A stretch of 64,000 nt of DNA from a virus. The number at the start of each line of letters is the position of its first letter. Within the stretch, counting starts at the first letter, position 1. This document shows, one piece after another, positions 3,251 to 19,835 of this stretch. Both the position numbers and the translations under genes were made by a program. The stretch lies in the IMG/VR virus record IMGVR_UViG_3300032117_000015, positions 1-64,000 of that record. One strand, written 5' to 3'. Under the pieces are notes generated by a model, which was not told the origin of the DNA, did not search any database, and worked only from the letters and a program-made list of their open reading frames with translations.

Positions 3251-3847
3251 TACAAAACAATCACAAATAACACTTACCTACGGTTACGTTATTTGCCGGT
3301 ATATGCGGCAGACGATACCGCATTTACTGCCGAAGAAATAGATCGTATTATTACTTACACGGATACACTAGGTTTACAAAAGGGCATGGATCGTAGTAAT
3401 GTAAGAAACAGCGATATCAATTTCATGCATAAAAATCCAGACAACACTTGGATATTTGAACGCTTAAATAAAGTGTTAGAAAACATGAATGAAAAGTATT
3501 TCAATTTTGAAATTAATGGTTACGACTATATTCAATATTCTGTTTATGAAGCCGCCAAAGATGGAAGATATGATTTTCATATAGACATGGGTTTAGGCGA
3601 AATGGAGCGTTCGTGGTTTGAAAATCGAAAACTTTCCATGACATTATTACTAACCGAACCGGGAGTAGATTTCAAAGGTGGAGATCTCGAATTTAACGTT
3701 TCTAACGAAAACAACGTACAACGCCCAAGACTTCGAAAAGGTACACTAGTGTTGTTTCCTAGTTTTTTATTACACAGAGTTACACCAGTAACAGAAGGCA
3801 TAAGAAAGAGTTTAGTTATTTGGCTAACTGGACCGAAATTTAAATAA
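3248..3847 (+). CDS. PKHD-type 2-oxoglutarate/Fe(II) dioxygenase
   Basis: A 199-residue protein with the double-stranded beta-helix signature of prolyl-4-hydroxylase-like oxygenases. Iron ligands are H111 and D113 (FHIDMG) and H176 (LLHRVTPV); R186 is placed to bind 2-oxoglutarate, and the strand GTLVLFPS just before H176 is typical. Such enzymes hydroxylate protein side chains or nucleic acid bases; the substrate is not shown here. A second, different oxygenase lies at 4164-4691 with only the DsbA gene between. The start codon sits in a hairpin, so translation may be regulated. Family assignment is firm. Confidence 0.85.
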   Translation: MYKTITNNTYLRLRYLPVYAADDTAFTAEEIDRIITYTDTLGLQKGMDRSNVRNSDINFMHKNPDNTWIFERLNKVLENMNEKYFNFEINGYDYIQYSVYEAAKDGRYDFHIDMGLGEMERSWFENRKLSMTLLLTEPGVDFKGGDLEFNVSNENNVQRPRLRKGTLVLFPSFLLHRVTPVTEGIRKSLVIWLTGPKFK

Positions 3848-3855
3848 AAAATGTG

Positions 3856-3884
3856 TTGCTCTTACAACATAAATAATTTATAAT
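3856..3884 (+). promoter_or_regulatory. sigma-70-like promoter before dsbA
   Basis: TTGCTC (3856-3861), a 17-base spacer and a perfect TATAAT (3879-3884), 20 bases before the start at 3905. The spacer also holds CATAAATA (3868-3875), one mismatch from the presumed late box, so the gene may be served by both host-type and late transcription. Confidence 0.55.
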
Positions 3885-3904
3885 AGGCTTATAAGGAGAG
3901 AAAT

Positions 3905-4162
3905 ATGGCAGGCAGAAATTACGGCGCAGAAGAAAAAGCAAAATTGGAACGTTTGATTAGCGAAGGTTCTACAGTATTGCGTGAAGTAGAAGACTTACAA
4001 GAAGGCTTAAAAGAAACTGTTAAAGCAGTTGCAGAAGAATTACAAATCAAACCGTCAGTTATTAACAAGGCTATTAAGATTGCACATAAAGGCGATTGGA
4101 GTCAGTATAACGAAGACTGGGAAGAGATTGAAGCTATTTTGGATATTACTAAACGTATCTAA
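3905..4162 (+). CDS. dsbA: DsbA-like double-stranded DNA-binding protein (late transcription accessory)
   Basis: An 85-residue charged helical protein with an AAGGAGAG ribosome binding site. The pattern VKAVAEEL.I.....NKAIKIAHKG.W matches DsbA-like proteins of T4-like phages; T4 DsbA binds dsDNA and late promoter regions and stimulates late transcription. An N-terminal coiled-coil (E..K.E.LI..G) is followed by the basic helix. The gene is followed without space by an oxygenase gene (stop at 4162, ATG at 4164). Assignment rests on remembered family resemblance, so the function is likely rather than shown. Confidence 0.65.
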   Translation: MAGRNYGAEEKAKLERLISEGSTVLREVEDLQEGLKETVKAVAEELQIKPSVINKAIKIAHKGDWSQYNEDWEEIEAILDITKRI

Positions 4163-4163
4163 T

Positions 4164-4691
4164 ATGCGAGTAATAGATCAACCTAATGCATTTTTAATCA
4201 CTAAGTTAGATCAGCATGAGCTTATTAAAGAGAGCATGCTGATGCTTATTGATAAATTAGGTGAACATAGTATTATCGAAGAGCATGGAAAAATTCCGCA
4301 ACGTATTTCAAATACAGACTGGTTTTTAACATTAAATGAAACCCCGGCATATTTTAATATGTTTAGTCCAATGGTTGCAGAACATTGCAGACAAGTTAAA
4401 AATATGTTAAAATTGCCAGTTGATATTAAGTGTGTCGATTATTGGTTTCAACAATATCGAACCGGTGACTATCATAGCTGGCATACTCATGCAAATTGTT
4501 TGTATTCGAATATATACTATTTAGATTTACCAGAAGGCACTAGTAAAACAACTTTTAAATTTATCGATAAAGAGTTTGAAGTAGACGTAGAAGAAGGCGA
4601 TATACTAACGTTTCCAGGTTCAATGCTACATTGTTCTAAACCGAACACAAGCGAACATACAAAAACTGTTATTGCTTTCAACACAAGATAA
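4164..4691 (+). CDS. 2OG-Fe(II) oxygenase-like protein (PF13759 type)
   Basis: A 175-residue protein. I place the start at ATG 4164, two bases after the DsbA stop; the longer open frame reaching back to 4029 would run through dsbA. The motif WHTHANC..SNIYYL (H107, H109) is the signature of the putative 2OG-Fe(II) oxygenase family PF13759, and H156 in FPGSMLHCSKPN supplies the distal ligand; the usual 2-oxoglutarate Arg is probably R175 at the very end (IAFNTR). It is distinct from the PKHD oxygenase at 3248. The substrate is unknown: protein prolines, lipids or nucleobases are all possible. Confidence 0.75.
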   Translation: MRVIDQPNAFLITKLDQHELIKESMLMLIDKLGEHSIIEEHGKIPQRISNTDWFLTLNETPAYFNMFSPMVAEHCRQVKNMLKLPVDIKCVDYWFQQYRTGDYHSWHTHANCLYSNIYYLDLPEGTSKTTFKFIDKEFEVDVEEGDILTFPGSMLHCSKPNTSEHTKTVIAFNTR

Positions 4692-4724
4692 AGGTCAGCG
4701 AGCCAATAAATCGCAGAAATGGTA

Positions 4725-4746
4725 TTTGTCAGCCAGAATTGACAAA
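4725..4746 (+). promoter_or_regulatory. hairpin before the DNA polymerase gene, candidate autogenous translational operator
   Basis: TTTGTCA (4725-4731) pairs with TGACAAA (4740-4746) around an 8-base loop GCCAGAAT. The 3' arm overlaps the AAGGAG ribosome binding site (4745-4750) of the polymerase gene. In T4, gp43 represses its own translation by binding a stem with an 8-base loop at the same place. Confidence 0.6.
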
Positions 4747-4760
4747 GGAGAAGAAAATTT

Positions 4761-7430
4761 ATGTCTTATGTAGACGCATGGTTTGACCGCGATAATGATA
4801 TTATCAAGATTGTCGAACGTAACAAAAAAGGTGAAAGGGAATTTAGAGATATTCCTGTACGCCACACATTCTATGTAAAAGACCCAAGAGGGAAATTTAC
4901 GTCAATATACGGCGATCCATTATTAAGAATCGTTTGTAAAAACACAAAAGAACTTCGTAAAGAACAAGCCATTAACAGTGGCAAAGAGTTATACGAAGCT
5001 GATATTAATCCAATATTTGTAACACTAAGCGAAAACTATCTTAATCAAGATGCTCCAAAATTAAATGTAGCGTTTTTCGATATTGAGGTAGACTTTGATC
5101 CAGAGCGTGGCTACGCTAGTCCAGACGATGCGTTCATGCCAATTACTGCGATTGCTGTCTACCTACAATGGTTGGAAACTATGGTCTGTTTGGCTATTCC
5201 TCCTAAGAAACTTAGCATGGAAGATGCCAAAGAAATGGTCAAAGATTTTCCTAACACATATTTGTTTGATAACGAAGCAGATTTGTTAAATATGTTTTTG
5301 GATCTAATTAAAGATGCAGATGTTATTAGCGGTTGGAACAGTGAAGGATTTGATATTCCGTACACCACTAATCGTGTAACAAAAGTATTGAGTAAAGAAG
5401 ATACTAGACGTTTTTGTTTGTTTAATCAATTTCCAAAACGTAGAGAATACGAAAAGTTTGGTCGAAATAGTGTAACCTATGACTATATTGGTCGCGTTCA
5501 TTTAGACTATCTCGAATTATACCGTAAGTATACGTATGAAGAACGCCACAGTTATAGACTTGATGCGATTGCAGAATATGAGCTAGGTGAACGTAAAACA
5601 CAATACGAAGGTACATTAGATCAATTATATAACAATGACTTTAAAACATTCGTTGAATATAACATCAATGACTGTATGCTTCTTGAAAAATTAGATAGAA
5701 AATTAAAATTCATGGATCTTGCCAATACACTGGCACATGAAAATACAGTATTGCTACAGACTACAATGGGTGCGGTAGCTGTTACTGAGCAAGCTATTAT
5801 TAACGAGGCACATCGTAGAGGTTTTCAAGTACCTAATCGTACTAAGATGAGTGACCGTGATGAAAACACAGCGGCGGCTGGTGCGTATGTAGCACATCCT
5901 AAAGAAGGTATTCAAGACTGGGTAGGATCATTAGACATTAACTCACTTTATCCGTCAGCGATTCGTGCGCTTAACATGGGTCCAGAAACTATCGTAGGTC
6001 AATTACGTCAGACACGCACAGAAGAATTTATCGAAACCCAGATGGCAAAAGGTAAGAGTTTTGCGGCATCTTGGGAAGGTAAATTTGGTACTGATGAATA
6101 TGAATCAGTAATAAATCAAGAAATTGGCACTGACATTACTATCGATTGGGAAAACGGTGACACTGATGTGTTGAGTGCGGCCGAGGTATATAAATTAATT
6201 TACGAAAGCAATCAGCCTTGGATGCTTTCGGCAAATGGTACAATCTTCAGCCACGAAAATGAAGGTATAATTCCAGGGCTACTGAAAAGGTGGTATGCAG
6301 AACGCAAGGAAATGCAGGCCAAATTAAAAGATGCTATCAAAGCTGGAAACAAAGTTGAAGAAGAATATTGGGACAAACGACAACTCGTTAAGAAGATTAA
6401 TCTTAACAGTCTTTATGGCGCTATTCTTAATAGTGGTTGTCGCTTTTTTGATAAACGAATCGGACAAAGTACCACACTCGTCGGACGTCAGATTGCCAAG
6501 CATATGGCGAGTAAAGTAAATGAAATTATTACAGGCGAATATAATCATGTAGGTAAAGCAGTTATCTACGGTGATACTGACTCTTGTTATTTTAGTGCTT
6601 ACAGCACACTAAAGAAAGACATCGATGCAGGACAAATTCCTTGGACCAAGGAAACTGTTATTCAACTGTATGACACTATCGGCGATGAAGTAAATGCTAC
6701 ATTTCCACAGTTTATGTTAGATGCATTCCATGTGCCTAAGAGTCGTGGAGAAGTTATTAAAGCTGGACGTGAAATTGTTGGATCTAAGAGTTTGTTCATT
6801 ACTAAGAAACGTTATGCAGTTCTTTACTACGATAAAGAAGGCAAGCGTACAGACGTAGATGGCAAAGCTGGTAAGATTAAAGCTATGGGCTTGGATCTTA
6901 AACGTAGTGATACTCCGGAATTTATTCAAAACTTCTTGAGTGATGTACTCGAAATGGTTCTAATGGGTAAGCCTGAACAAGAAGTTCTAGATCATATCAG
7001 CGAGTTTAGAATTAGATTTAAAGCTCGTCCAGGCTGGGAAAAAGGTTCACCTAAACGTGCTAACAACATTACAGAATACGAAGCTAAAGAAAAGAAAGCT
7101 GGTAAGATTAATATGCCAGGTCATGTTCGTGCAAGTATTAACTGGAATACATTAAAGCGTATGTTCGATGACAAATATTCTATGGGTATTACAGACGGTG
7201 CTAAAGTTATTGTATGTAAACTCAAACCTAATCCGTTAGGTTACACATCAGTCGCTTACCCTGTAGACGAACTGAGATTACCACAATGGTTTAAAGACTT
7301 ACCATTTGATCATGCCGAAATGGAGGCAACAATTATCGATAATAAATTATCAAATTTAATCGGTGTATTGAAGTGGGACCTAAATAGCACAGAAGAAAAA
7401 ACAACATTTAACAGTTTATTCGAGTTTTAA
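4761..7430 (+). CDS. 43: DNA polymerase, family B (T4 gp43-like)
   Basis: An 889-residue replicative polymerase, close to the 898 residues of T4 gp43. The exonuclease domain shows Exo I FFDIEVDF (D107, E109), Exo II GWNSEGFDIP (191-200) and Exo III YNINDCMLL (300-308). The polymerase domain shows motif A DINSLYPSAIR (392-402), motif B KKINLNSLYGA (544-554) and motif C YGDTDS (603-608), all intact. The C-terminus FNSLFEF resembles the clamp-binding tail of RB69/T4 polymerases. A probable sliding clamp gene follows at 8248. The ribosome binding site is partly inside a hairpin that may be an autoregulatory operator. Function is certain. Confidence 0.98.
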   Translation: MSYVDAWFDRDNDIIKIVERNKKGEREFRDIPVRHTFYVKDPRGKFTSIYGDPLLRIVCKNTKELRKEQAINSGKELYEADINPIFVTLSENYLNQDAPKLNVAFFDIEVDFDPERGYASPDDAFMPITAIAVYLQWLETMVCLAIPPKKLSMEDAKEMVKDFPNTYLFDNEADLLNMFLDLIKDADVISGWNSEGFDIPYTTNRVTKVLSKEDTRRFCLFNQFPKRREYEKFGRNSVTYDYIGRVHLDYLELYRKYTYEERHSYRLDAIAEYELGERKTQYEGTLDQLYNNDFKTFVEYNINDCMLLEKLDRKLKFMDLANTLAHENTVLLQTTMGAVAVTEQAIINEAHRRGFQVPNRTKMSDRDENTAAAGAYVAHPKEGIQDWVGSLDINSLYPSAIRALNMGPETIVGQLRQTRTEEFIETQMAKGKSFAASWEGKFGTDEYESVINQEIGTDITIDWENGDTDVLSAAEVYKLIYESNQPWMLSANGTIFSHENEGIIPGLLKRWYAERKEMQAKLKDAIKAGNKVEEEYWDKRQLVKKINLNSLYGAILNSGCRFFDKRIGQSTTLVGRQIAKHMASKVNEIITGEYNHVGKAVIYGDTDSCYFSAYSTLKKDIDAGQIPWTKETVIQLYDTIGDEVNATFPQFMLDAFHVPKSRGEVIKAGREIVGSKSLFITKKRYAVLYYDKEGKRTDVDGKAGKIKAMGLDLKRSDTPEFIQNFLSDVLEMVLMGKPEQEVLDHISEFRIRFKARPGWEKGSPKRANNITEYEAKEKKAGKINMPGHVRASINWNTLKRMFDDKYSMGITDGAKVIVCKLKPNPLGYTSVAYPVDELRLPQWFKDLPFDHAEMEATIIDNKLSNLIGVLKWDLNSTEEKTTFNSLFEF

Positions 7431-7431
7431 T

Positions 7432-8208
7432 ATGAAAATTATAATTGCAGGATATGGCTTTGTCGGCAAAGCTGTTTACAATTCGCTGATAGATAAAAAC
7501 AATGTTTACATTGTAGATCCAAAATATACCACTGCTGAAATAGAACACTATCCAGATGCAGATGGTATTATTATTTGTGTGGGAACTCCTAGTACTGAGC
7601 TAGGAGATTGTGATGTTAGTCAAGTATATGCAGTAATGAAAAAGGTTCCTGAAACGTTGCCTGTATTAATCAAGTGTACAGTACGTCCAGACTATTTGAA
7701 TAAGATTATTACCGATTTTCCTAAACACAATATTGCCTATAGTCCAGAGTTTTTACGTGCGGCTACTGCTAACGAAGACTTTGCCAATCAGGAATATATG
7801 ATTTTAGGCGGAAGTAATCCCGGAAATATTTGGAGTAATTTATTCACCGATTCACTTAAACACCTAAATAACATTGAACATTGTACACTAACAGAAGCAA
7901 GCATGGTAAAATATGCCACTAATTGTTTCCTAAGTGTCAAAGTAGCGTTCTTTAATCAGTTATATGATATGTGCCAAATAAACGGCGCTGATTATAATAC
8001 AGTTATCGAACTACTGCAAATGGATGACAGGATTGGCAATAGTCATATGCAAGTCCCCGGTCCTGATGGATCACGTGGTTTTGGCGGTGCTTGTTTCCCC
8101 AAAGACACTAGTGCATTTGTACATTATGCTGATAAAGTTGGAATAATTCATACTCTAGTAGAATCGGCAATAAAATATAACAAAAAAATTAGAAAAACAT
8201 TGACATAG
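7432..8208 (+). CDS. UDP-glucose/GDP-mannose 6-dehydrogenase family protein, short form
   Basis: A 258-residue protein beginning one base after the polymerase stop. It has the Rossmann motif GYGFVG (7-12), the VGTPS segment (50-54), YSPEFLR (103-109), the lysine region MVKYATN (K160) and the catalytic Cys motif GFGGACFPKD (C221). Full enzymes of this family oxidise a sugar nucleotide to the uronic acid and have about 390-430 residues; here the C-terminal nucleotide-binding domain is missing. The reading frame ends in a clean TAG that overlaps the next promoter, and no remnant follows, so this looks like a stable short form. It may dimerise for UDP binding, or act on a different substrate such as a virion or surface sugar precursor. 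Confidence 0.8.
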   Translation: MKIIIAGYGFVGKAVYNSLIDKNNVYIVDPKYTTAEIEHYPDADGIIICVGTPSTELGDCDVSQVYAVMKKVPETLPVLIKCTVRPDYLNKIITDFPKHNIAYSPEFLRAATANEDFANQEYMILGGSNPGNIWSNLFTDSLKHLNNIEHCTLTEASMVKYATNCFLSVKVAFFNQLYDMCQINGADYNTVIELLQMDDRIGNSHMQVPGPDGSRGFGGACFPKDTSAFVHYADKVGIIHTLVESAIKYNKKIRKTLT

Positions 8209-8227
8209 TCACAAAAGAAAGTATAAT
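8200..8227 (+). promoter_or_regulatory. sigma-70-like promoter before the clamp gene
   Basis: Perfect TTGACA (8200-8205), 16-base spacer, perfect TATAAT (8222-8227). The -35 box overlaps the stop codon of the preceding dehydrogenase. The predicted start of transcription (about 8234) leaves a short leader. Confidence 0.85.
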
Positions 8228-8247
8228 AGAAAAACATGGAGAATCAT

Positions 8248-8979
8248 ATGAAAGACTTTTTACAAGATTTAGTTGCACATACACATAGCTTAGGTTTCTT
8301 ACCTTTGGTTAGAATTAGTTCAACTACCAAAGAAACTAAGATTGAAACAATGGCAGAAGATCGTACTGTTATTGTAGATGGCAAGACTCATAATGCTGTA
8401 GACCAATTAGAAGGTACATTCGGTATGCCAAATCTAAATAAACTAGATTTGCATTTAAAGTGTCCAGAATACAAAGAAGGTGCTGGCATTAGTGTTGTTG
8501 TACAGAATCGCAACGGAGAAGATGTGCCAACTGGATTGCACTTTCAAAACGCATTAGGCGATTTTGAAAATGATTATCGTTTTATGAATCAAGAAATCAT
8601 TAACGAAAAAATGAAGAGTGTTAAATTCAAAGGTGCTAACTGGGAAGTAGTGTTTGAACCAAGTGTTGCAAGTATTCAAAAGTTAAAGTATCAAGCGGCC
8701 GCACACACTGAAGAAACTACATTCCAAGTTAAGACTGAAAATGGTAATTTAGTATTCAGTTTCGGTGATGCAAACACACACGCAGGTTCATTTATTTTCC
8801 AATCAGGTATTACTGGTAAACTAAAACAACAATGGGCTTGGCCTGTTGCACAAGTACAAAGCATTTTAAACTTAGCAGGTGACAAAACTATACGTATTGC
8901 AGATGTTGGTGCAATGCAAATTACAGTAGATAGCGGAATCGCTGTTTACAACTATACATTACCAGCACAGAGCAAGTAA
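8248..8979 (+). CDS. 45: probable sliding clamp (gp45-like DNA polymerase processivity factor)
   Basis: A 243-residue protein. I place the start at ATG 8248, which has GGAG six bases upstream; ATG 8236 would be nearly leaderless. The chain has a clamp-like pattern: an N-terminal helix, FGMPNLNKL in the first domain, a middle SVASIQKLKYQ helix and a C-terminal IRIADVGAMQITVDSG..VYNYTLPA ending that recalls PCNA/gp45 beta strands. Size fits T4 gp45 (228 residues). It has its own strong promoter, as expected for a protein needed in excess over polymerase. The identification rests on fold pattern and context next to the polymerase, not on invariant residues. Confidence 0.6.
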   Translation: MKDFLQDLVAHTHSLGFLPLVRISSTTKETKIETMAEDRTVIVDGKTHNAVDQLEGTFGMPNLNKLDLHLKCPEYKEGAGISVVVQNRNGEDVPTGLHFQNALGDFENDYRFMNQEIINEKMKSVKFKGANWEVVFEPSVASIQKLKYQAAAHTEETTFQVKTENGNLVFSFGDANTHAGSFIFQSGITGKLKQQWAWPVAQVQSILNLAGDKTIRIADVGAMQITVDSGIAVYNYTLPAQSK

Positions 8980-9152
8980 TGGACTCGAAAAAACGAAGCA
9001 TGGTAAAGATGGTTAGTTTTAAAATACTAACCATTGCAGTTACTATTCCTATCACTGGACTAGGTACTGCACTAGCCGTACACGCATTAACAACTATTTG
9101 CTTTTATGTGCATGAAAGAGTATGGAACAAAATTAATTGGGGTCAACTTTGA
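8979..9152 (+). CDS. small membrane protein, DUF2061-like
   Basis: A 57-residue protein whose ATG overlaps the clamp stop codon (TAATG). After a basic N-terminus (MDSKKRSMVK) come two hydrophobic stretches around residues 15-30 and 30-43, then the ending HERVWNKINWG, which is characteristic of DUF2061 membrane proteins found in bacteria and phages. It should sit in the host inner membrane with both ends in the cytoplasm. The function of the family is unknown. It is translationally linked to both neighbours. Confidence 0.75.
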   Translation: MDSKKRSMVKMVSFKILTIAVTIPITGLGTALAVHALTTICFYVHERVWNKINWGQL

Positions 9153-10852
9153 ATCGTAACTTAACAGCTACACAAAACGATTACGCATATTTTTTGCCAG
9201 CGACTAGTGGTTTCTATAGTACCTATATAGGTAAACAACGCTATGGAAATTATGTAGATCCTGCAAGAGTGCCGGCTAGTTTTAAAAATGGTGTAGAAAG
9301 TCTTAACTACTTAGAGCCGGATAAAGGTGCATTTTATTATGATCATTGCTTATATTCAGCAGGTCATGCTAATTTAGACTTGACTAAACAGGACGACAGC
9401 GAAGACATGTTTCGCAATAGAGATCGTACAACTAGTTGGGTACTAGGTGATTCAGGTGGATTCCAAATTGGTAAAGGTGTATGGGCCGGAGAATGGAGAG
9501 ATCCCACCGGTCCAGAAGTTGCGGCCAAGTGGGTAGAAGTTAATGCTAAAGGTATCGAACTAGTTCCGCAACTAGATGCTACTGGTAATCCTAAATTAGA
9601 TAAAAATGGTAATCCAAAGATGTCTAAGATAGATCACCCTAAGTTGTATCAAGCACAATTAGATGCGGCACAAAAGAAACGTGAGCAAGTGCTTGCGTGG
9701 ATGGATGCGTTAATGGACTATGGTATGGTGCTTGATATTCCAGCGTGGGTAGCTCGTAGTCCGGATGGTATGAAAGCCACTGGTATTACATCATACGACC
9801 AAGCTGTTAACGCTACAATATACAATAATGAATATTTTATTAAACATCGTACAGGTGCTTGCAAGTTCTTAAACGTTCTGCAAGGGGAAAACCATAGCCA
9901 AGCCGAAGATTGGTATCAAAAGATGAAACATTTTTGCGATCCAACTAAATTCGACAAACCATTTAATGGTTGGGCAATGGGTGGACAAAATATGTGTGAT
10001 GCACACCTTGTTTTAAAAAGGGTCGTGGCATTGAAGTTCGACGGATTACTAGAAAAAGGTCATCAAGACTGGATGCACTTTCTTGGAACTAGTAAATTAG
10101 AGTGGGCGTTACTGCTCACAGACATTCAACGTGCTGTAAGGAAATATCATAATGAAAACTTTACCATATCTTTTGACTGCGCCTCACCGTTCCTTGCAAC
10201 GGCAAACGGACAAATCTACGTTCAAACAGAAATCACAGACAGACAAAAGTGGCTCTACAGAATGTTGCCGTCTATTGACAACAAGAAATACGCCTCTGAC
10301 ACACGACTCTTCCAAGATGCAGTAGTACAAGACGGTCATTTTAAGAACTTTGAAACTAGCCCAGTGATGGACGGTGTTGAAGTTAATAAAATTTGTATCT
10401 ACGGACCTAATGATGTTAATAAATTAGGTAAAATTGGTAAGACAAGTTGGGATAGTTTCACTTATGCTATTATGATGGGTCATAATGTTTGGATGCATAT
10501 TAATGCCGTCCAAGAAGCCAACCGTCAATATGATGCTGGATTATGCCCAACTATGTTAGTTCAAGAAACATTTGATAGATTATATGCTAAAGATGTAATT
10601 GATGCTATTATTGGCGCACCGGATCGCGATACTGCCAATGCTATTATCGATGAATTTAGCAAATTTTGGATGGCTATCCCGGGCACACGAGGTTACACCG
10701 GCAAGAAAACAGTTAACTCAAGTACCAAATACTTCGAATTGTTTGACGAAGAGGATGCAGATACTGTACAATCAGAAGATGAAACAGAATTTTCTGAAGA
10801 CGTTATTGATAAACTTGACGAACTCGAGGCCAGTGTACATGACATTACCTGA
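9149..10852 (+). CDS. dpdA: DpdA-like DNA guanine transglycosylase (TGT family)
   Basis: A 567-residue protein of the queuine tRNA-ribosyltransferase superfamily. The substrate loop is DSGGFQIGKG (residues 101-110) and the second catalytic aspartate lies in SFDCASPF (D343), matching TGT DSGGFQ and DS.DC..P. Phage members of this size act on DNA rather than tRNA, exchanging guanine for a 7-deazaguanine base. FolE, QueE and a QueD-like protein in the same region support this. An insertion near 140-160 and a very acidic C-terminal tail (530-567) are unusual. I choose TTG 9149, which overlaps the preceding TGA; TTG 9137 is the other option, adding four residues. Which DpdA subfamily it belongs to cannot be decided here. 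Confidence 0.8.
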   Translation: MNRNLTATQNDYAYFLPATSGFYSTYIGKQRYGNYVDPARVPASFKNGVESLNYLEPDKGAFYYDHCLYSAGHANLDLTKQDDSEDMFRNRDRTTSWVLGDSGGFQIGKGVWAGEWRDPTGPEVAAKWVEVNAKGIELVPQLDATGNPKLDKNGNPKMSKIDHPKLYQAQLDAAQKKREQVLAWMDALMDYGMVLDIPAWVARSPDGMKATGITSYDQAVNATIYNNEYFIKHRTGACKFLNVLQGENHSQAEDWYQKMKHFCDPTKFDKPFNGWAMGGQNMCDAHLVLKRVVALKFDGLLEKGHQDWMHFLGTSKLEWALLLTDIQRAVRKYHNENFTISFDCASPFLATANGQIYVQTEITDRQKWLYRMLPSIDNKKYASDTRLFQDAVVQDGHFKNFETSPVMDGVEVNKICIYGPNDVNKLGKIGKTSWDSFTYAIMMGHNVWMHINAVQEANRQYDAGLCPTMLVQETFDRLYAKDVIDAIIGAPDRDTANAIIDEFSKFWMAIPGTRGYTGKKTVNSSTKYFELFDEEDADTVQSEDETEFSEDVIDKLDELEASVHDIT

Positions 10853-11090
10853 TGAAAGATACCGAGCAGTAGTAGAGACTCAAAAGTTTTTAGCTGAGAT
10901 CCTTATTACTCCTCGGGTTCCCAAAGCAATTAAAGACCGAGCAAGGGCATGTTTGCGTCACTATCCTAACGAATACGATATGCATCATGCGGCAGGACTA
11001 GCACCAGAAATATTTGCTAAACGCATGGAAGATGTAACACGTATGTTTAAGCAATACGAACAATCAAAGGCAGAAAAGAATGAAAACTAG
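10839..11090 (+). CDS. BPSL0761-family small protein
   Basis: An 83-residue protein beginning MTLPDERYRAV with RVPKAIKDRARACLRHYP in the middle, the typical pattern of the BPSL0761 family (named from Burkholderia). The family has no known function. ATG 10839 lies inside the end of dpdA (14-base overlap), so the two are coupled; the longer frame extending to 10599 is an antisense-free overlap with dpdA and unlikely. Charged and probably helical. The family is mainly seen in beta-proteobacteria, the best host hint in the window. Confidence 0.7.
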   Translation: MTLPDERYRAVVETQKFLAEILITPRVPKAIKDRARACLRHYPNEYDMHHAAGLAPEIFAKRMEDVTRMFKQYEQSKAEKNEN

Positions 11091-11961: not shown

Positions 11962-12863
11962 TGGTCAAATGCTTACAAACTGTTAGCGATGGCGTATTTA
12001 AAGAAGTAGATTATGCCAAACCTGATATAGCGTTTAACGAGATCGAAGTTAAAGCAGTTATGACTGGTGTTTGTCGCAGTGACATCGACATGATGTTAGG
12101 CGACTTTGGTCCGTTGCCATTACACATGCAAGGTCACGAAGGCATTGGTCAAGTAACAAAGATCGGGTCGCAAGTGAATAACGTTAATATCGGTGACTTT
12201 GTTGCTACACGTGGTGAACCTGCGTATGCAGACTATTACAATGTTAAAGAAGATGAGTATGTCAGAGTACCAAAAGCCGAACCTAAGTATATTTTAGAAC
12301 CAGTAGCTTGCGGTATTAACCTTATTAATCAAGCAAAAGACCAAATTGAACATAGACAAGGTCGTGGTGAAAACACACGTATGCTAATTATTGGTAGTGG
12401 TTTCCTTGCGTGGGTTGCGTATCATACTATGCGCTTAAATGGCTACATATATCACGTAGATGTGCTAGGACATAGTAATAAAGAGCTTTGGCAAGACAAG
12501 TTATTGCCCAGTACTATCGAAAACTATGATGTAGTTATCGACCTTAGCGGTAATTTTGAACTAGGCCCACAGATTAACCTAAATAACAATGCCTTAATAA
12601 TCGACGGTGTCGGTAAGGCTGTATCAAAACAAGAGGCACAAGTCCAACTTTGGAAAGCTGTTACCACTATCAAACCAAGCCCACGTAATCCTCAGTTTAT
12701 CGATTGCATGTATATGGCAAAATATTGGATTGAAAAAGGCTATCTAGAGGTTGATTCCTTCTGGACAAAGTGTTACAATCGTACTACAGAATGGGAACAA
12801 GCGTTTGCGGACGGCGTTAATCGTCCGAGTGGTTATAGCAGAGGTTATATTAAATGGGATTAA
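11958..12863 (+). CDS. medium-chain dehydrogenase/reductase (zinc alcohol dehydrogenase-like)
   Basis: A 301-residue protein. I start at ATG 11958, in an ATGA overlap with the preceding gene. The catalytic zinc motif is GVCRSDID (C39) and GHEGIG follows (H60, E61); V..GD.V..R gives the usual beta turn. The structural-zinc four-Cys loop of classical alcohol dehydrogenases is absent, as in many sugar dehydrogenases. The nucleotide-binding part (around 135-145, IIGSGFLA) is short. The pairing with a Gfo/Idh protein suggests a small sugar or cyclitol conversion pathway, whose product might feed glycosylation of DNA or virion. That role is inferred only from neighbourhood. Confidence 0.75.
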   Translation: MMVKCLQTVSDGVFKEVDYAKPDIAFNEIEVKAVMTGVCRSDIDMMLGDFGPLPLHMQGHEGIGQVTKIGSQVNNVNIGDFVATRGEPAYADYYNVKEDEYVRVPKAEPKYILEPVACGINLINQAKDQIEHRQGRGENTRMLIIGSGFLAWVAYHTMRLNGYIYHVDVLGHSNKELWQDKLLPSTIENYDVVIDLSGNFELGPQINLNNNALIIDGVGKAVSKQEAQVQLWKAVTTIKPSPRNPQFIDCMYMAKYWIEKGYLEVDSFWTKCYNRTTEWEQAFADGVNRPSGYSRGYIKWD

Positions 12864-13381
12864 ACACTGACGAAAGACAAAACATTGTCTATTTTACAGG
12901 TTATGAAGTAGAGCATACTATTTGTCATGGTATGTATACACTATTTGTGGTAGGTACCCCTCCTTTAGAAGAAATTCTAATGCATGCAACTTGCGGTTCA
13001 GATAAAGTTACACACATTTACTTTGGCACTAGTCAGAGTTTTAATCCAAAATCTATTTCACAAGAAGAATATAAAGCGTGGGATGAAGTTATTATCGGTT
13101 GTTTAAAGAAAGACTTTTGGGTAACGCTAGACTTTGGCGTTGAACACATCGAAGGTGTTTTAGAATCTGCTTATAATGAATATCCTCGCTTTGTTCCTAT
13201 GATTAGTGTCAAGCTACCTTACATTAATCAACTTAACTATAACGCCACACTTAAACTAGATGATCGCACTTGGGGTGCTACTAATCCAGGTGTGTGGACT
13301 CATCAACTCCATGATCTAATGCGTATGGACAAATATACGCACTGGGATCAATATACACAAGATACACCACATGATTATTAA
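12854..13381 (+). CDS. conserved phage protein of unknown function next to the QueD-like gene
   Basis: A 175-residue soluble protein without a signal or membrane segment. Notable motifs are FTGYEVEHT near the N-terminus, THIYFGTSQSF around 54-64, VTLDFGVEHIEG and a Trp-rich ending (WGATNPGVWTHQLHDL). I do not recognise a catalytic family. Overlap by ten bases with the zinc dehydrogenase upstream and 11 bases with the QueD-like gene downstream shows translational coupling, so a role in the deazaguanine pathway (for instance a missing late step) is an attractive guess, not a finding. Confidence 0.7.
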   Translation: MGLNTDERQNIVYFTGYEVEHTICHGMYTLFVVGTPPLEEILMHATCGSDKVTHIYFGTSQSFNPKSISQEEYKAWDEVIIGCLKKDFWVTLDFGVEHIEGVLESAYNEYPRFVPMISVKLPYINQLNYNATLKLDDRTWGATNPGVWTHQLHDLMRMDKYTHWDQYTQDTPHDY

Positions 13382-13760
13382 ACAAGACATCCGTCCTTTA
13401 AAGATGATTTGGGTTACCTTTCAGAAAGAAGGTATGCACAAATATCCGGCCGCACTTACAGATCCAACACTTGCAACAGGTGATGAATATGATGTAAGTT
13501 TTCTAGGCTATCCGCATCGTCACATATTCCATTTTAAAGTATGGATTAGTGTTACACACGATGATCGCGATATCGAATTTATTCAGTTTAAACGCTGGTT
13601 GGAAAATCTGTACAAAGAAGGTACACTCCAACTAGACTACAAGAGTTGCGAAATGATGTCAGGTGATTTATATGACAGCATTTCCAATAAGTATCCAGGC
13701 CGCGAGGTGTGGATTGAAGTCTCCGAAGATGGAGAAAATGGTTCATTTATCAAATATTAA
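13371..13760 (+). CDS. queD: QueD-like T-fold protein (6-carboxytetrahydropterin synthase-like), divergent
   Basis: A 129-residue protein whose layout fits the QueD/PTPS T-fold. F17..H23 (TFQKEGMH) corresponds to the first zinc ligand, H49 and H51 (YPHRHIFHF) to the HGH pair, DIEFIQFKRWL (67-77) to the DF..LK helix, and IEVSEDGENG (115-124) to the pterin-binding glutamate strand. QueD converts dihydroneopterin triphosphate to CPH4, the step between FolE and QueE, both encoded nearby. The catalytic Cys normally four residues before HGH is absent (Leu here), though C93 is present. So it may be a functional variant or a T-fold paralogue acting elsewhere in the pathway. Assignment is by pattern only. 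Confidence 0.55.
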   Translation: MIIKQDIRPLKMIWVTFQKEGMHKYPAALTDPTLATGDEYDVSFLGYPHRHIFHFKVWISVTHDDRDIEFIQFKRWLENLYKEGTLQLDYKSCEMMSGDLYDSISNKYPGREVWIEVSEDGENGSFIKY

Positions 13761-13774
13761 AACAAGAGGCTACA

Positions 13775-14032
13775 ATGGCTAAAAATTACAAAGACTATTC
13801 TTATTTCGAAAACCGTCCAGATGTTGTTAAAATCTTCGATGATTTAGATTCATTCCGCGATTGGTGTCGTTTAGAGATGGCTCCATTTGACGAAGCTCAC
13901 CTGTACAACAGAGAAAGCTGGGCATGGAGAAACTTTGAAAAATCACGTCGTCCTAAGAAGCCGTTCACAGGCGAACGCAAACCTTACTTAGGCAAAAACC
14001 CACGTTACAACAATGACCGTATTTCTAATTGA
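13775..14032 (+). CDS. conserved small basic phage protein
   Basis: An 85-residue protein with a good ribosome binding site (AGAGG). It has a central aromatic stretch (YNRESWAWRNF) and a basic, proline-rich C-terminus (SRRPKKPFTGERKPY) suited to nucleic acid binding. No family function is known to me. It overlaps the glycosyltransferase gene by 20 bases. Confidence 0.7.
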   Translation: MAKNYKDYSYFENRPDVVKIFDDLDSFRDWCRLEMAPFDEAHLYNRESWAWRNFEKSRRPKKPFTGERKPYLGKNPRYNNDRISN

Positions 14033-15080
14033 TCTAGAAGCAGTTGAGACAAGGTACACTGGCGAATGGAAACGCCATGTACCTGCTCTTTTACGAAAGG
14101 AAGGACACAATGTTCAAATTATATCTGGTCCTACGGATATTCCTCAAGCTACTACTCCTGGTGCCTTTCTTAATTTTGGTGGTACCAATATTTACAAGTC
14201 TAGTCAAGTTGAGCAAATGGGCCGTTTATTTTGTAACGGATCCGTTCATCCCGGTGATCACTTTATCTTTACTGATGCTTGGCACCCTGGTATCATAAAC
14301 TTAAAGTACATGAGTGAGTTACTGGGCATTCCAGTAACAACACATGGCTTATGGCATGCTGGCAGTTATGATCCTCAAGACTTTCTCGGACGCTTAGTCG
14401 GAGATAAGCCTTGGGTAAGATATGCCGAACAAAGTTTCTATCACGCATTTGATCACAACTACTTTGCTACAACATTCCATATTGAAATGTTTGGTAAGAA
14501 TTTACTAGGCAAAGGAGGTTATGTTCCAGAAGCTAATGTAACTAAGAAAGTTGTTCGCACAGGTTGGCCAATGGAGTATATGGACGATACATTAACCATG
14601 TATAAGAATATGCCCAAACGTGACCTTATTCTTTTCCCCCATCGCATCGCGCCCGAGAAGCAAGTTGAGATTTTTCGAGACTTAGCTACACACTTACCGC
14701 AGTATGAATTTGTAGTGTGTCAGGATCAACAGCTAACAAAAAATGAATATCATAACTTGTTAGGCGAAGCGAAGATGGTGTTTAGTGCTAACTTACAAGA
14801 AACTTTAGGCATTAGTTGCTATGAAGGTGCGGTAGTTGATGCTATTCCACTAGTGCCTGATAGATTAAGTTATACAGAAATGTATTACGACACATTCAAA
14901 TATCCAAGTAAATGGACAGAAGATTTTAATGCTTATAATGTATTTAGACCAGACTTGTGTGGAAAGATTATACAATTAATGGATAACTATCAAAGCATGA
15001 TTCCTTCTGTTAGAAAACAAGCAAAGGATCTACATGAGTACTTCTTCAGTGCCAGTGAATTACTATCAAACATCAAGTGA
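14013..15080 (+). CDS. GT-B fold glycosyltransferase
   Basis: A 355-residue protein. The C-terminal half has the classic GT-B/GT4 order: LFPHRIAPEKQ (phosphate-contacting loop, about 207-217), a strand EFVVCQDQ, and the EAKMVFSANLQETLGISCYEGAVVD region, whose E..G.S..EA-like pattern binds the sugar nucleotide. The N-terminal half begins FLIDLEAVETRYTGEW and has GLWHAGSYD. T4-like phages use GT-B enzymes to glucosylate DNA; others decorate virion proteins. Here it lies within the modification-gene region and overlaps the following structural-type gene by 47 bases. Acceptor unknown. Confidence 0.75.
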   Translation: MTVFLIDLEAVETRYTGEWKRHVPALLRKEGHNVQIISGPTDIPQATTPGAFLNFGGTNIYKSSQVEQMGRLFCNGSVHPGDHFIFTDAWHPGIINLKYMSELLGIPVTTHGLWHAGSYDPQDFLGRLVGDKPWVRYAEQSFYHAFDHNYFATTFHIEMFGKNLLGKGGYVPEANVTKKVVRTGWPMEYMDDTLTMYKNMPKRDLILFPHRIAPEKQVEIFRDLATHLPQYEFVVCQDQQLTKNEYHNLLGEAKMVFSANLQETLGISCYEGAVVDAIPLVPDRLSYTEMYYDTFKYPSKWTEDFNAYNVFRPDLCGKIIQLMDNYQSMIPSVRKQAKDLHEYFFSASELLSNIK

Positions 15081-16259: not shown

Positions 16260-16476
16260 ATCAGTTAGAGATACATTTAAAACAATGGTTATCAAAGAAC
16301 ACGAAGGCTTTCGCTTGACTCTTAACAAACATGAAGTACTAAGCCCTAAAGGTTTGTTTAGTATTGATATGGTTCAAGAGTCTCTGAAAGACGGTGAAGT
16401 TGTCGACTCACAAACTTATAACTTCTTTATGACTAAGGAAGAATGTCAAGCATTGGCATACGGACTAACTGCATGA
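16246..16476 (+). CDS. small hypothetical protein
   Basis: A 76-residue protein starting at ATG 16246, six bases after GGAG. Acidic and basic residues alternate; SPKGLFSIDMVQESLKDG in the middle. I do not recognise it. Its stop overlaps the start of the phosphoribosyltransferase (ATGA). Confidence 0.6.
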   Translation: MELHESVRDTFKTMVIKEHEGFRLTLNKHEVLSPKGLFSIDMVQESLKDGEVVDSQTYNFFMTKEECQALAYGLTA

Positions 16477-16967
16477 AGAAAGTTTATTACAGTTGGAAGG
16501 ACATCCAAGGAGCAGTTTTAGAAATTGCTCGTCAAATGAGTATTGATGATCAGTGGCGTCCTGATTATATTGTAGGCATTACACGTGGTGGGTCAGTGCC
16601 TGCTGTGTTACTAAGCCAATACACAGGTATTCCTATGAAATCCTTAGATGTAAGCCTGCGTGATGGCGGAGACCTTGTTAGTAACTGCGGTATGGCAGAG
16701 GATGCTTACGATGGTAAAAATATTCTTGTTGTAGATGATATTAATGATCAAGGCAGTACTATTGCTTGGATCAAACAAGATTGGCGTTCAAGTGCTTTAC
16801 CTAGTGCTATTCGTTGGGATAACGATATATGGCATAAGACTGTTCGCTTTGCTACGCTTACAAACAATCTAGCTAGCAAAGAATCTGTTGACTATAACGT
16901 ATGGGAAGTCAACAAAGCAGAAGAAGATTGTTGGTTAGTTTACCCTTGGGAGGATTTTTGGAAATGA
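16473..16967 (+). CDS. phosphoribosyltransferase-family protein
   Basis: A 164-residue type I PRTase fold. The PRPP-binding loop is ILVVDDINDQGST (84-96), preceded by the flexible-loop start YIVGITRGGSVPA (32-44). Xanthine, hypoxanthine or orotate phosphoribosyltransferases look like this; the closest overall pattern is xanthine/hypoxanthine (gpt-like). It would link a free base to PRPP, a plausible purine or deazapurine salvage step beside FolE and QueE. Start at ATG 16473 overlaps the preceding stop. Confidence 0.8.
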   Translation: MKKVYYSWKDIQGAVLEIARQMSIDDQWRPDYIVGITRGGSVPAVLLSQYTGIPMKSLDVSLRDGGDLVSNCGMAEDAYDGKNILVVDDINDQGSTIAWIKQDWRSSALPSAIRWDNDIWHKTVRFATLTNNLASKESVDYNVWEVNKAEEDCWLVYPWEDFWK

Positions 16968-17710: not shown

Positions 17711-18442
17711 ATGACTGAATCCATGACATATAAAAATATAGACGAAACAGAAGGCAGACCGCTACACGTGGTCATTCGCGAACAAATGAAATCGCAAGGT
17801 CAACGCTTTTGGGCTGGTGACAATATTAGCGATTACATCGACGAAGAACAAAAAGAAGTCTTAATCGAAGAAGCTACTGTGGCTTTTGAAAAAGTATTGG
17901 ATGCTCTGTTAATTGATAGAGAAACAGATCCAAACTCGCATGGTACTGCGAAGCGTCTAGCTAAAATGTACTTTAACGAAATTATGGCAGGTAGATATGA
18001 ACCAGCACCAGATGCAACAGCATTTCCAAATGATTCGGAGGACCGTTACGAAGGTATGTTGGTTGTCCGTAGTGAGCTTCGCAGTATGTGTAGTCATCAT
18101 CACCAACCCGTTACTGGTGTTGCTTATATTGGCATTATTGCCGCTCAAAAACTTATCGGACTTAGCAAGTACACAAGAATCGCACAGTGGTGTGCAAGAC
18201 GTGGTACTCTCCAGGAGGAACTTTGTAATGACATTGCTAGGGAAATCCAAAAAGCCACAGGAGCATCAGACTTAGGTGTGTATATTCAAGCTACACACGG
18301 ATGCTGTGAGAATCGCGGTATTATGGCCAAGAGTAGTTTAACACAGACTACAGTATTGCGTGGTGCGTTTAATACAGATATGGGTACAAAGAAAGAGTTC
18401 TTTGACAATATTAAACTACAACAAGACTGGGCATCAAAATAA
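17711..18442 (+). CDS. folE: GTP cyclohydrolase I (FolE)
   Basis: A 243-residue enzyme converting GTP to 7,8-dihydroneopterin triphosphate, first step of both folate and 7-deazaguanine synthesis. Zinc ligands are C127 and H130 (SMCSHHHQP) and C198 (HGCCENRGI); GTAKRLAKMYFNEI (78-91) is the usual N-terminal family helix and IGLSKYTRIAQWCARR the substrate region. All are intact. It probably opens a transcription unit with its own promoter, continuing to QueE through two small genes. In a phage with DpdA and QueE its product is best explained as precursor for DNA base modification. Confidence 0.95.
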   Translation: MTESMTYKNIDETEGRPLHVVIREQMKSQGQRFWAGDNISDYIDEEQKEVLIEEATVAFEKVLDALLIDRETDPNSHGTAKRLAKMYFNEIMAGRYEPAPDATAFPNDSEDRYEGMLVVRSELRSMCSHHHQPVTGVAYIGIIAAQKLIGLSKYTRIAQWCARRGTLQEELCNDIAREIQKATGASDLGVYIQATHGCCENRGIMAKSSLTQTTVLRGAFNTDMGTKKEFFDNIKLQQDWASK

Positions 18443-18789: not shown

Positions 18790-18994
18790 CAATTTAATAC
18801 ATCGTTTACGCAACTCAACATTGCAGTTGTTTGAAATTAAACGAGAAGTAGGACCAGGATGGTTGCCGCAAGGCACCATCCCTTTTGACATTAGAGCTAG
18901 TAACGGTGTTGCTACATTTAAAGTATATGCAGAATTTTTACAAGATGCTGAAGATCAAGTAACACAATTTTTAGAACAGGACGAAGATGAGTAA
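18764..18994 (+). CDS. small hypothetical protein before queE
   Basis: A 76-residue protein; I choose ATG 18764, eight bases after AAGGA. It contains VGPGWLPQGTIPFDIRASNG and ends in an acidic tail. Function unknown. Overlaps queE by eight bases. Confidence 0.6.
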   Translation: MQNAKDITDNLIHRLRNSTLQLFEIKREVGPGWLPQGTIPFDIRASNGVATFKVYAEFLQDAEDQVTQFLEQDEDE

Positions 18995-19835
18995 GATTAA
19001 AATCGCAGAATTATTTTATAGTATCCAAGGAGAAGGACGTTACATGGGTGTGCCGTCTGTTTTCTTGCGTACATTTGGTTGCAACTTTAAATGTGCTGGA
19101 TTTGGTATGCCAAAGGGTCAACTAAGTACAGAAGCAGACGAAATTTCAGAAGTAGTTCATTTATATAACAAATATGAAGAACTGCCACTGGTTAGCACAG
19201 GATGTGATAGTTATGCTAGCTGGCATCCTAGTTTTAAAGATCTTAGTCCAATGCTTACTAGTGATGCAATCGCAGATAGAATTACAGAAATTTTACCGCA
19301 CAATGAATGGCTAGATGAACACTTGGTTATTACCGGTGGCGAGCCATTATTGGGTTGGCAACGTGCTTACCCAGACTTGCTTAATCATCCTAAAATGTCA
19401 GGATTGAAAGAAATTACATTTGAAACAAATGGTACACAGGGACTAAGCGAAGAGTTCTTTAACTATCTAAATGCATGGAAACGTGCATACGATGATAGAG
19501 AAATTACATTTAGTGTAAGTGCTAAACTTCTATGTAGTGGCGAAAAGTGGGAGGAAGCAATTCGCCCAGAAGTAGTTTGCGAGTACGAACAAGTTGGCAC
19601 AGCATATTTGAAGTTTGTTATTGCTACCGAAGAAGATAGAGACTATGCATTAAAAGCCGCTAGTGAATATCGTGCGGCAGGTTTTAAAGGTCATGTTTAC
19701 TTTATGCCAGTTGGAGGCGTTGAAAGTGTGTATAACCTAAATGCTAAATCTGTAGCACTAATGGCAATGAAGCATGGTTTGCGATACAGTGATCGATTGC
19801 AAGTGCCGTTATTTAAAAATGAGTGGGGAACCTAA
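18987..19835 (+). CDS. queE: 7-carboxy-7-deazaguanine synthase (QueE), radical SAM
   Basis: A 282-residue radical SAM enzyme that turns CPH4 into 7-carboxy-7-deazaguanine. IQGEGRYMGVPSVFLRTFGCN is the QueE N-terminus; the cluster ligands are C32 and C36 (GCNFKC) and C73 (TGCDSYASW). Instead of CX3CX2C the third Cys is 37 residues away, in the CD(S/T) motif used by QueE. TGGEPLL (116-122) binds the SAM amino group. Length is above the usual 210-250, because of the insertion between C36 and C73. The gene lies downstream of folE in the same direction, and dpdA is 8 kb upstream, so CDG for DNA modification is the likely product. Confidence 0.88.
   Translation: MSKIKIAELFYSIQGEGRYMGVPSVFLRTFGCNFKCAGFGMPKGQLSTEADEISEVVHLYNKYEELPLVSTGCDSYASWHPSFKDLSPMLTSDAIADRITEILPHNEWLDEHLVITGGEPLLGWQRAYPDLLNHPKMSGLKEITFETNGTQGLSEEFFNYLNAWKRAYDDREITFSVSAKLLCSGEKWEEAIRPEVVCEYEQVGTAYLKFVIATEEDRDYALKAASEYRAAGFKGHVYFMPVGGVESVYNLNAKSVALMAMKHGLRYSDRLQVPLFKNEWGT

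What the first reader, a model, noticed from the sequence alone, without database searches (positions are those of the whole stretch)
13371..13760. QueD-like T-fold protein lacking the catalytic cysteine
H23, H49 and H51 and the DIEFIQFK and IEVSEDGENG strands line up with QueD, but the Cys four residues before HGH is Leu. A cysteine (C93) sits elsewhere. It may be a QueD with moved nucleophile or a paralogue doing another step, such as removing the carboxyl group of CDG.
Basis: partly seen in the sequence, partly recalled or inferred. Interest (0 to 1): 0.65.

Follow-up and report, generated by a model that had tools for sequence, protein, structure and literature searches.

The report
QueD-fold enzyme acting after QueE
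A small phage protein has the fold and zinc site of the enzyme QueD but not its catalytic residues; it most likely replaces a different, later step of the pathway by which the phage builds the unusual DNA base 7-deazaguanine, probably by removing a carboxyl group.

Summary
The ORF at 13371-13760 encodes a T-fold protein of the QueD/PTPS type: AlphaFold pLDDT 94.7, and the best 28 Foldseek matches in the PDB are PTPS-fold proteins, E. coli QueD first. It keeps QueD's three zinc histidines (H23, H49, H51) and pterin-anchoring Glu (E119). In 54 non-redundant relatives (<70% identical) the residue at the catalytic-Cys place is always Leu (L45), and QueD's catalytic Asp-His is not conserved. New invariant residues appear (H63, R66, S92, E94; C93 in 53 of 54).

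It is not the phage's QueD. Ten of eleven complete phages that carry it have a separate QueD-family gene, plus FolE and QueE. QueC is almost always missing: one weak match in 11 carriers, against 13 of 13 QueD phages without this protein (p = 6e-6), and none in 219 loci. It therefore probably acts on QueE's product, CDG, where QueC otherwise would. Decarboxylation to 7-deazaguanine fits best, as predicted for DpdL (Cui et al. 2023; abstract recalled, paper not held). That DpdL is this family is my inference.

The "moved nucleophile" reading is unlikely. Unexpected: a GT4-like glycosyltransferase gene lies within 1 kb in 112 of 121 close loci.

The parts
13371..13760 (+). T-fold (QueD/PTPS-like) protein, 129 aa, invariant Leu in place of the catalytic Cys; proposed CDG-acting enzyme (DpdL-like)
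   Evidence: Zn-type His H23 (codon 13437-13439), H49, H51; family-specific invariants H63, R66, S92, E94; E119 = QueD E110
9137..10852 (+). DpdA-like DNA-guanine transglycosylase (contains the TGT motif DSGGFQ); the TTG start is uncertain
   Evidence: Sequence motif; the Magnetospirillum counterpart matches Pfam TGT only weakly (E 0.026); 13 phage records, 12 of them carriers of the T-fold protein; present in 39 of 40 loci with full flanks
12854..13381 (+). Conserved neighbour of unknown function, overlaps the start of the T-fold gene by 11 bases
   Evidence: Homologue in 39 of 40 loci with full flanks, and in Acidovorax phage ACP17
13775..14032 (+). Conserved 85-aa neighbour of unknown function
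   Evidence: 40 of 40 loci with full flanks
14013..15080 (+). GT4-like (GT-B) glycosyltransferase, candidate enzyme for decorating the modified base
   Evidence: Pfam Glycos_transf_1 in 8 of 11 relatives, best 8e-12; within 1 kb of the T-fold gene in 112 of 121 loci; all 15 phage records with a match over at least 80% of it carry the T-fold protein
16443..16967 (+). Phosphoribosyltransferase, possibly guanine salvage after base exchange
   Evidence: Pfam Pribosyltran 9.4e-13; present in 33 of 40 loci with full flanks
17711..18442 (+). FolE, GTP cyclohydrolase I (first step)
   Evidence: Pfam 1.2e-38
18987..19835 (+). QueE-like radical SAM protein (makes CDG)
   Evidence: PHROG 2076 'QueE-like radical SAM domain' 8.4e-51

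Best explanation
The protein is a T-fold paralogue of QueD that acts one step after QueE, on 7-carboxy-7-deazaguanine (CDG), in place of QueC. Its likely reaction is metal-assisted decarboxylation of CDG to 7-deazaguanine, which DpdA then puts into the phage DNA in exchange for guanine. Proposed mechanism (inferred): E119 and E94 anchor the 2-amino-pyrimidinone ring as QueD anchors its pterin; a metal on H23, H49 and H51 holds the 7-carboxylate and O6, much as iso-orotate decarboxylase (a known Zn enzyme) holds its substrate; R66 orients the carboxylate and H63, with D65, supplies the proton to C7. Invariant L45 leaves no thiol where QueD does its chemistry. Supported by computation here: the fold, kinship with QueD, conserved residues, co-occurrence with FolE/QueE/DpdA and absence of QueC. 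Inferred: substrate, product, metal and roles of residues.
For: Fold: AlphaFold pLDDT 94.7, pTM 0.84; the best 28 PDB matches are PTPS-fold proteins, E. coli QueD first (E 1.1e-5, probability 1.00, TM 0.66-0.69). Kinship: hhalign 94.7%, E 6.3e-8, with H23, H49, H51, E69-F70, E94 and E119 falling on H16, H31, H33, D54-F55, E86 and E110 of E. coli QueD (QueD sequence checked against PDB 4ntm; shuffles). Residues: 54 non-redundant members with H23, L45, H49, H51, H63, R66, E69, F70, S92, E94, E119 at 100%. Not the QueD: a separate PF01242 gene in 10 of 11 complete phages that carry it. Branch at CDG: QueC in 1 of 11 carriers (weak, D479) against 13 of 13 QueD phages without the protein, Fisher p 5.6e-6; no QueC among 219 loci, with a working positive control. 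79 of 80 distant viral loci have FolE, QueE, QueD or DpdA nearby. Two archaeal loci hold QueD-QueE-FolE plus this protein and no QueC nearby. Literature recalled, not read here: the abstract of Cui et al. 2023 (NAR 51:9214) reports 2'-deoxy-7-deazaguanine in phage DNA and a predicted CDG decarboxylase, DpdL.
Against: No activity has been measured. Absence of QueC could mean that the host supplies preQ0, so the enzyme could act on preQ0 or another derivative. Vibrio phage D479 has the protein and a weak, partial QueC match, but no detected QueD. The 13 comparison phages were picked by hand from one search, and phages share ancestry, so the Fisher value is only indicative. A glycosyltransferase next to the gene is not needed for plain decarboxylation. 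Distances between H63, R66 and the metal site were not measured in the model. The paper that names DpdL could not be read, so identity with DpdL is not confirmed.
Confidence: 0.6

Rival explanations
1. It acts on CDG (or, with host QueC, on preQ0) but does something other than simple decarboxylation: it prepares the base for the neighbouring glycosyltransferase, so that the final DNA base is a glycosylated 7-deazaguanine derivative.
For: GT within 1 kb in 112 of 121 close loci; all 15 phage records with a match over at least 80% of the GT carry the T-fold protein; GT-T-fold-DpdA-QueD cassette in Magnetospirillum genomes; a remote GT homologue lies beside a QueC-domain gene and a BshB-like deacetylase gene in Xanthomonas phage PhiXhv-12; reported fusions of a T-fold domain to an alcohol-dehydrogenase-like protein and to an AAA protein.
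Against: The GT was not detected near the gene in 26 of 80 distant viral loci, nor near it in phiST, MA9V-3, RHph_I1_18 or Bakedbeans, so the T-fold reaction does not depend on it; decarboxylation followed by glycosylation explains the same data.
Confidence: 0.2
2. It is a QueD (CPH4 synthase) whose nucleophile has moved to C93.
For: C93 is conserved in 53 of 54 relatives and the zinc histidines are kept. No PF01242 gene in the 82-kb window record.
Against: A separate QueD-family gene in 10 of 11 complete carriers; loss of the catalytic DH as well as the Cys; C93 sits where some Cys-bearing phage QueDs also have Cys; Met in one relative. The window record is a fragment: 6 of the 8 related contigs of 130 kb or more have a QueD.
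Confidence: 0.07
3. It is a non-catalytic partner that forms mixed oligomers with the phage QueD, giving the zinc site that many of these phage QueDs lack (they read FRQ..C..HGY instead of AAH..C..HGH).
For: The common phage QueD keeps Cys, Asp-His and Glu but lacks two zinc ligands, and the T-fold protein has the opposite set.
Against: The same phage QueD type occurs in many phages without the T-fold protein, with QueC; carriers Bakedbeans and Magnetospirillum have a QueD with all zinc ligands; the new invariant H63 and R66 suggest a chemistry of its own.
Confidence: 0.07
4. It is an inactive relict or a structural protein of T-fold origin without enzymatic role.
For: The known catalytic triad is gone.
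Against: Eleven invariant positions, most of them polar, kept down to 32-37% identity; stable linkage to the pathway in phages, bacteria and archaea.
Confidence: 0.04

Closest known systems
QueD / PTPS-I (6-carboxytetrahydropterin synthase, PF01242, COG0720)
   Same: T-fold, three zinc-type histidines, Glu pterin anchor, DF-type helix start, S-x-E helix start; member of the same pathway
   Different: Leu instead of the catalytic Cys, HRH instead of HGH, no conserved Asp-His, shortened loop before the second long helix; new invariant H63 and R66; coexists with a real QueD
DpdL, predicted 7-carboxy-7-deazaguanine decarboxylase (Cui et al. 2023, NAR 51:9214, PMC10516641; not held, recalled from the abstract)
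   Same: Pathway position after QueE; expected in phages whose DNA carries dDG and that need no QueC
   Different: Could not be compared sequence by sequence; membership is my inference. The glycosyltransferase neighbour is not part of what I recall of DpdL
QueC (PF06508) as the usual CDG-consuming enzyme
   Same: Same inferred substrate, CDG; the two genes almost exclude each other
   Different: Unrelated fold (PP-loop ATPase); makes preQ0 by amidation and dehydration instead of decarboxylation
QueF / QueF-L (T-fold enzymes acting on preQ0)
   Same: T-fold; a T-fold enzyme acting late in a 7-deazaguanine pathway
   Different: Structurally farther than QueD (first QueF-like match at rank 30); the nitrile-attacking Cys environment was not recognised

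Membership tests
QueD / PTPS-I | T-fold of PTPS type | tested here: met
   pLDDT 94.7; E. coli QueD 4ntk E 1.1e-5
QueD / PTPS-I | Signature CxxxHGH (PMC5041015) | tested here: not met
   LxxxHRH (HFH in two) in 54 of 54
QueD / PTPS-I | Catalytic Asp-His pair | tested here: not met
   Positions 89/90 variable; the QueD loop is shortened
QueD / PTPS-I | Sole COG0720 enzyme of the pathway in its genome | tested here: not met
   Separate PF01242 match in 10 of 11 complete phages
QueD / PTPS-I | Makes CPH4; complements delta-queD | not testable with these tools
   Needs experiment
PTPS-II / PTPS-III | CxxxxxHGH or ExxHGH signature (PMC5041015) | tested here: not met
   Position -6 never Cys; position -3 Glu in only 3 of 54
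DpdL (predicted CDG decarboxylase) | Encoded with FolE, QueD, QueE and DpdA, QueC absent | tested here: met
   in the window itself no QueD was found in the 82-kb fragment
DpdL (predicted CDG decarboxylase) | Sequence homology to the published DpdL proteins | not testable with these tools
   Paper and sequences not held; the name was not found in papers on phages
DpdL (predicted CDG decarboxylase) | CDG to 7-deazaguanine activity; dDG in phage DNA | not testable with these tools
   Needs enzyme assay and LC-MS of DNA
QueF / QueF-L | Closest structural neighbour is QueF with its Cys/Asp/Glu site | tested here: not met
   QueF-L first appears at rank 30, E 0.011; QueD and PTPS fill ranks 1-28

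The most novel reading that the evidence does not exclude
The T-fold protein, the adjacent glycosyltransferase and a divergent DpdA form a mobile cassette that makes a new kind of DNA base, a glycosylated 7-deazaguanine. CDG is first decarboxylated (or otherwise changed) by the T-fold enzyme, inserted by DpdA, and then glycosylated, perhaps directly on C7. The cassette is carried by many large environmental phages and by genomic islands of bacteria such as Magnetospirillum.
Probability: 0.3. Interest if true: 0.78.

Novelty: new member of a known kind. Interest (0 to 1): 0.47.

Why it matters
If right, a QueD-type scaffold was re-used for the next-but-one step of the same pathway by deleting its catalytic triad and keeping its metal and substrate anchor, a clean case of enzyme evolution with testable residues (L45, H63, R66, E94). 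It would supply sequences and a structure model for an enzyme that, as far as I recall, has only been predicted, and link a protein family annotated 'hypothetical' in all 26 phage records to DNA modification. The glycosyltransferase association, if functional, points to a DNA base that I have not seen described.

Tried and rejected
Pfam, NCBIfam and PDB sequence searches alone do not detect the relation; profile-profile and fold comparison do. A first AlphaFold run on close relatives gave pLDDT 80 and was repeated with a diverse alignment. Searches with the phiST and Aeromonas homologues as single queries found nothing; an alignment query did. I considered that the ordinary phage QueD (FRQ..HGY type) might itself be the decarboxylase and rejected it: it is the common QueD of phages that do have QueC. 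Moved nucleophile: rejected for the reasons under rivals. The key paper (NAR 2023) and the 2024 review are not held, and literature searches for DpdL or glycosylated deazaguanine gave nothing usable. The glycosyltransferase matched only general GT4 families and gave no hint of its acceptor.

Full report
What is there. The window is 64 kb of an 82,148-base virus record. ORF 13371-13760 (+) is 129 aa and starts inside the last codons of the gene before it. It belongs to phrog_17812, unknown function, and is 'hypothetical protein' in the matching annotated phage records (26 records).

Fold and kinship. Pfam does not match this protein. With 64 diverse relatives AlphaFold gives pLDDT 94.7 and pTM 0.84, with two long strands, two long helices and two strands in the order of a T-fold. 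Foldseek's best 28 PDB matches are PTPS-fold proteins, E. coli QueD first. Profile-profile comparison with canonical QueD sequences gives 94.7%, E 6.3e-8 over 113 columns; shuffled profiles reach less than half that score. The alignment sets H23 on H16, H49 and H51 on H31 and H33, E69-F70 on D54-F55, S92-C93-E94 on T84-S85-E86, and E119 on E110 of E. coli QueD.

What is conserved. Across 54 relatives sharing less than 70% identity, H23, L45, H49, H51, H63, R66, E69, F70, S92, E94 and E119 never change; C93 is Met once. So the missing cysteine is not an accident of this phage but a fixed feature of the family. The published QueD signature is CxxxHGH, with CxxxxxHGH for PTPS-II and ExxHGH for PTPS-III (PMC5041015); this family has LxxxHRH. 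QueD's catalytic Asp-His is not conserved either. C93 fills the slot before the conserved Glu of the second long helix, where several phage QueDs that keep their catalytic Cys also have Cys, so it is a weak candidate for a moved nucleophile.

Not the QueD of its pathway. Of 11 complete phage records that carry the family, 10 also have a PF01242 match. In phiST, ACP17, RHph_I1_18, BUCT-ZZ01 and MA9V-3 the two genes lie in the same region with FolE, and in all but RHph_I1_18 QueE is annotated there too. In the window no PF01242 gene was found in 82 kb, but 6 of the 8 related contigs of 130 kb or more have one far from this gene.

Branch at CDG. QueC normally consumes CDG (PMC13329287). Only one of the 11 carriers has a QueC match over the family cut-off, weak and partial (Vibrio phage D479). 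I then took 13 phages that have QueD but not this protein: all 13 have QueC, 12 of them strongly. Fisher p is 5.6e-6, or 9e-5 if the weak one is discounted; shared ancestry and hand selection make this indicative only. Among 219 loci around the gene no QueC homologue was found, while the same query set finds diverse QueCs. 79 of 80 distant viral loci have FolE, QueE, QueD or DpdA nearby. The simplest reading is that the protein takes over CDG where QueC otherwise would.

Proposed chemistry (inference). CDG without amidation can lose its carboxyl group to give 7-deazaguanine. 2'-Deoxy-7-deazaguanine has been reported in phage DNA, and a decarboxylase, DpdL, was predicted in the same abstract (Cui et al. 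2023; recalled, not readable here). Keeping the metal site and the Glu anchor while deleting the thiol and Asp-His fits a metal-assisted decarboxylation, with H63 and D65 as proton source and R66 for the carboxylate. The analogy to iso-orotate decarboxylase, where Zn chelates a ring carbonyl and the carboxylate, is from general knowledge.

Surroundings. In loci with full flanks the gene almost always keeps the same company: the DpdA-like gene, the gene at 12854, the gene at 13775 and the glycosyltransferase at 14013. The glycosyltransferase is GT4-like, and all 15 phage records matching at least 80% of it carry the T-fold protein. Magnetospirillum contigs, one from the isolate M. aberrantis SpK and one 1.4 Mb long, hold a compact glycosyltransferase / T-fold / DpdA / QueD cassette with an integrase gene a few kilobases away. 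A Methanoperedenaceae MAG has QueD-QueE-FolE, a linalool-dehydratase-like protein, the T-fold protein and a methyltransferase, which suggests uses beyond phage DNA. None of this shows what the glycosyltransferase acts on.

Verdict. Most likely this is a member of a predicted but, to my knowledge, untested enzyme kind. The glycosyltransferase link is the most surprising lead.

Noticed in passing
window 14013-15080: GT4-like glycosyltransferase gene that travels with the T-fold protein (within 1 kb in 112 of 121 loci; all 15 phage records with full-length matches are carriers). It may glycosylate the modified base.
   Followed up: partly
L246, L247 (Magnetospirillum), about 6800-10900: Genomic cassette glycosyltransferase - T-fold protein - DpdA-like - QueD with an integrase gene a few kilobases away; looks like a 7-deazaguanine DNA-modification island in bacteria.
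   Followed up: partly
L254 (Methanoperedenaceae), 3762-9310: Archaeal cluster QueD-QueE-FolE, linalool dehydratase/isomerase-like protein, T-fold protein, methyltransferase; possible 7-deazaguanine-derived metabolite. A second archaeal locus (L252) also has QueD-QueE-FolE.
   Followed up: partly
phage QueD genes, e.g. L081:7487-7981, L090:6262-6729: The common phage QueD type keeps Cys, Asp-His and Glu but lacks two of the three zinc histidines (FRQ..C..HGY instead of AAH..C..HGH).
   Followed up: partly
BFVD A0A6J5LEZ6 and A0A8S5V119; L091:9464-10345; L087:9212-10363: Fusions of the T-fold domain to an alcohol-dehydrogenase-like protein, to an AAA-domain protein, and to unidentified N-terminal domains.
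   Followed up: no
L262 (Xanthomonas phage PhiXhv-12), 8911-12145: A long gene with a QueC domain (annotated as an aminotransferase), a BshB-like deacetylase gene and a remote homologue of the glycosyltransferase lie side by side; possible amino-sugar on a 7-deazaguanine base.
   Followed up: no
window 18987-19835: The QueE-like protein has CxxxC followed by a long insertion before the next Cys (GCDSYAS), an unusual spacing for the radical-SAM cluster motif.
   Followed up: no
window 41372-56209 (-): A single ORF of 4945 aa between other structural-looking genes.
   Followed up: no
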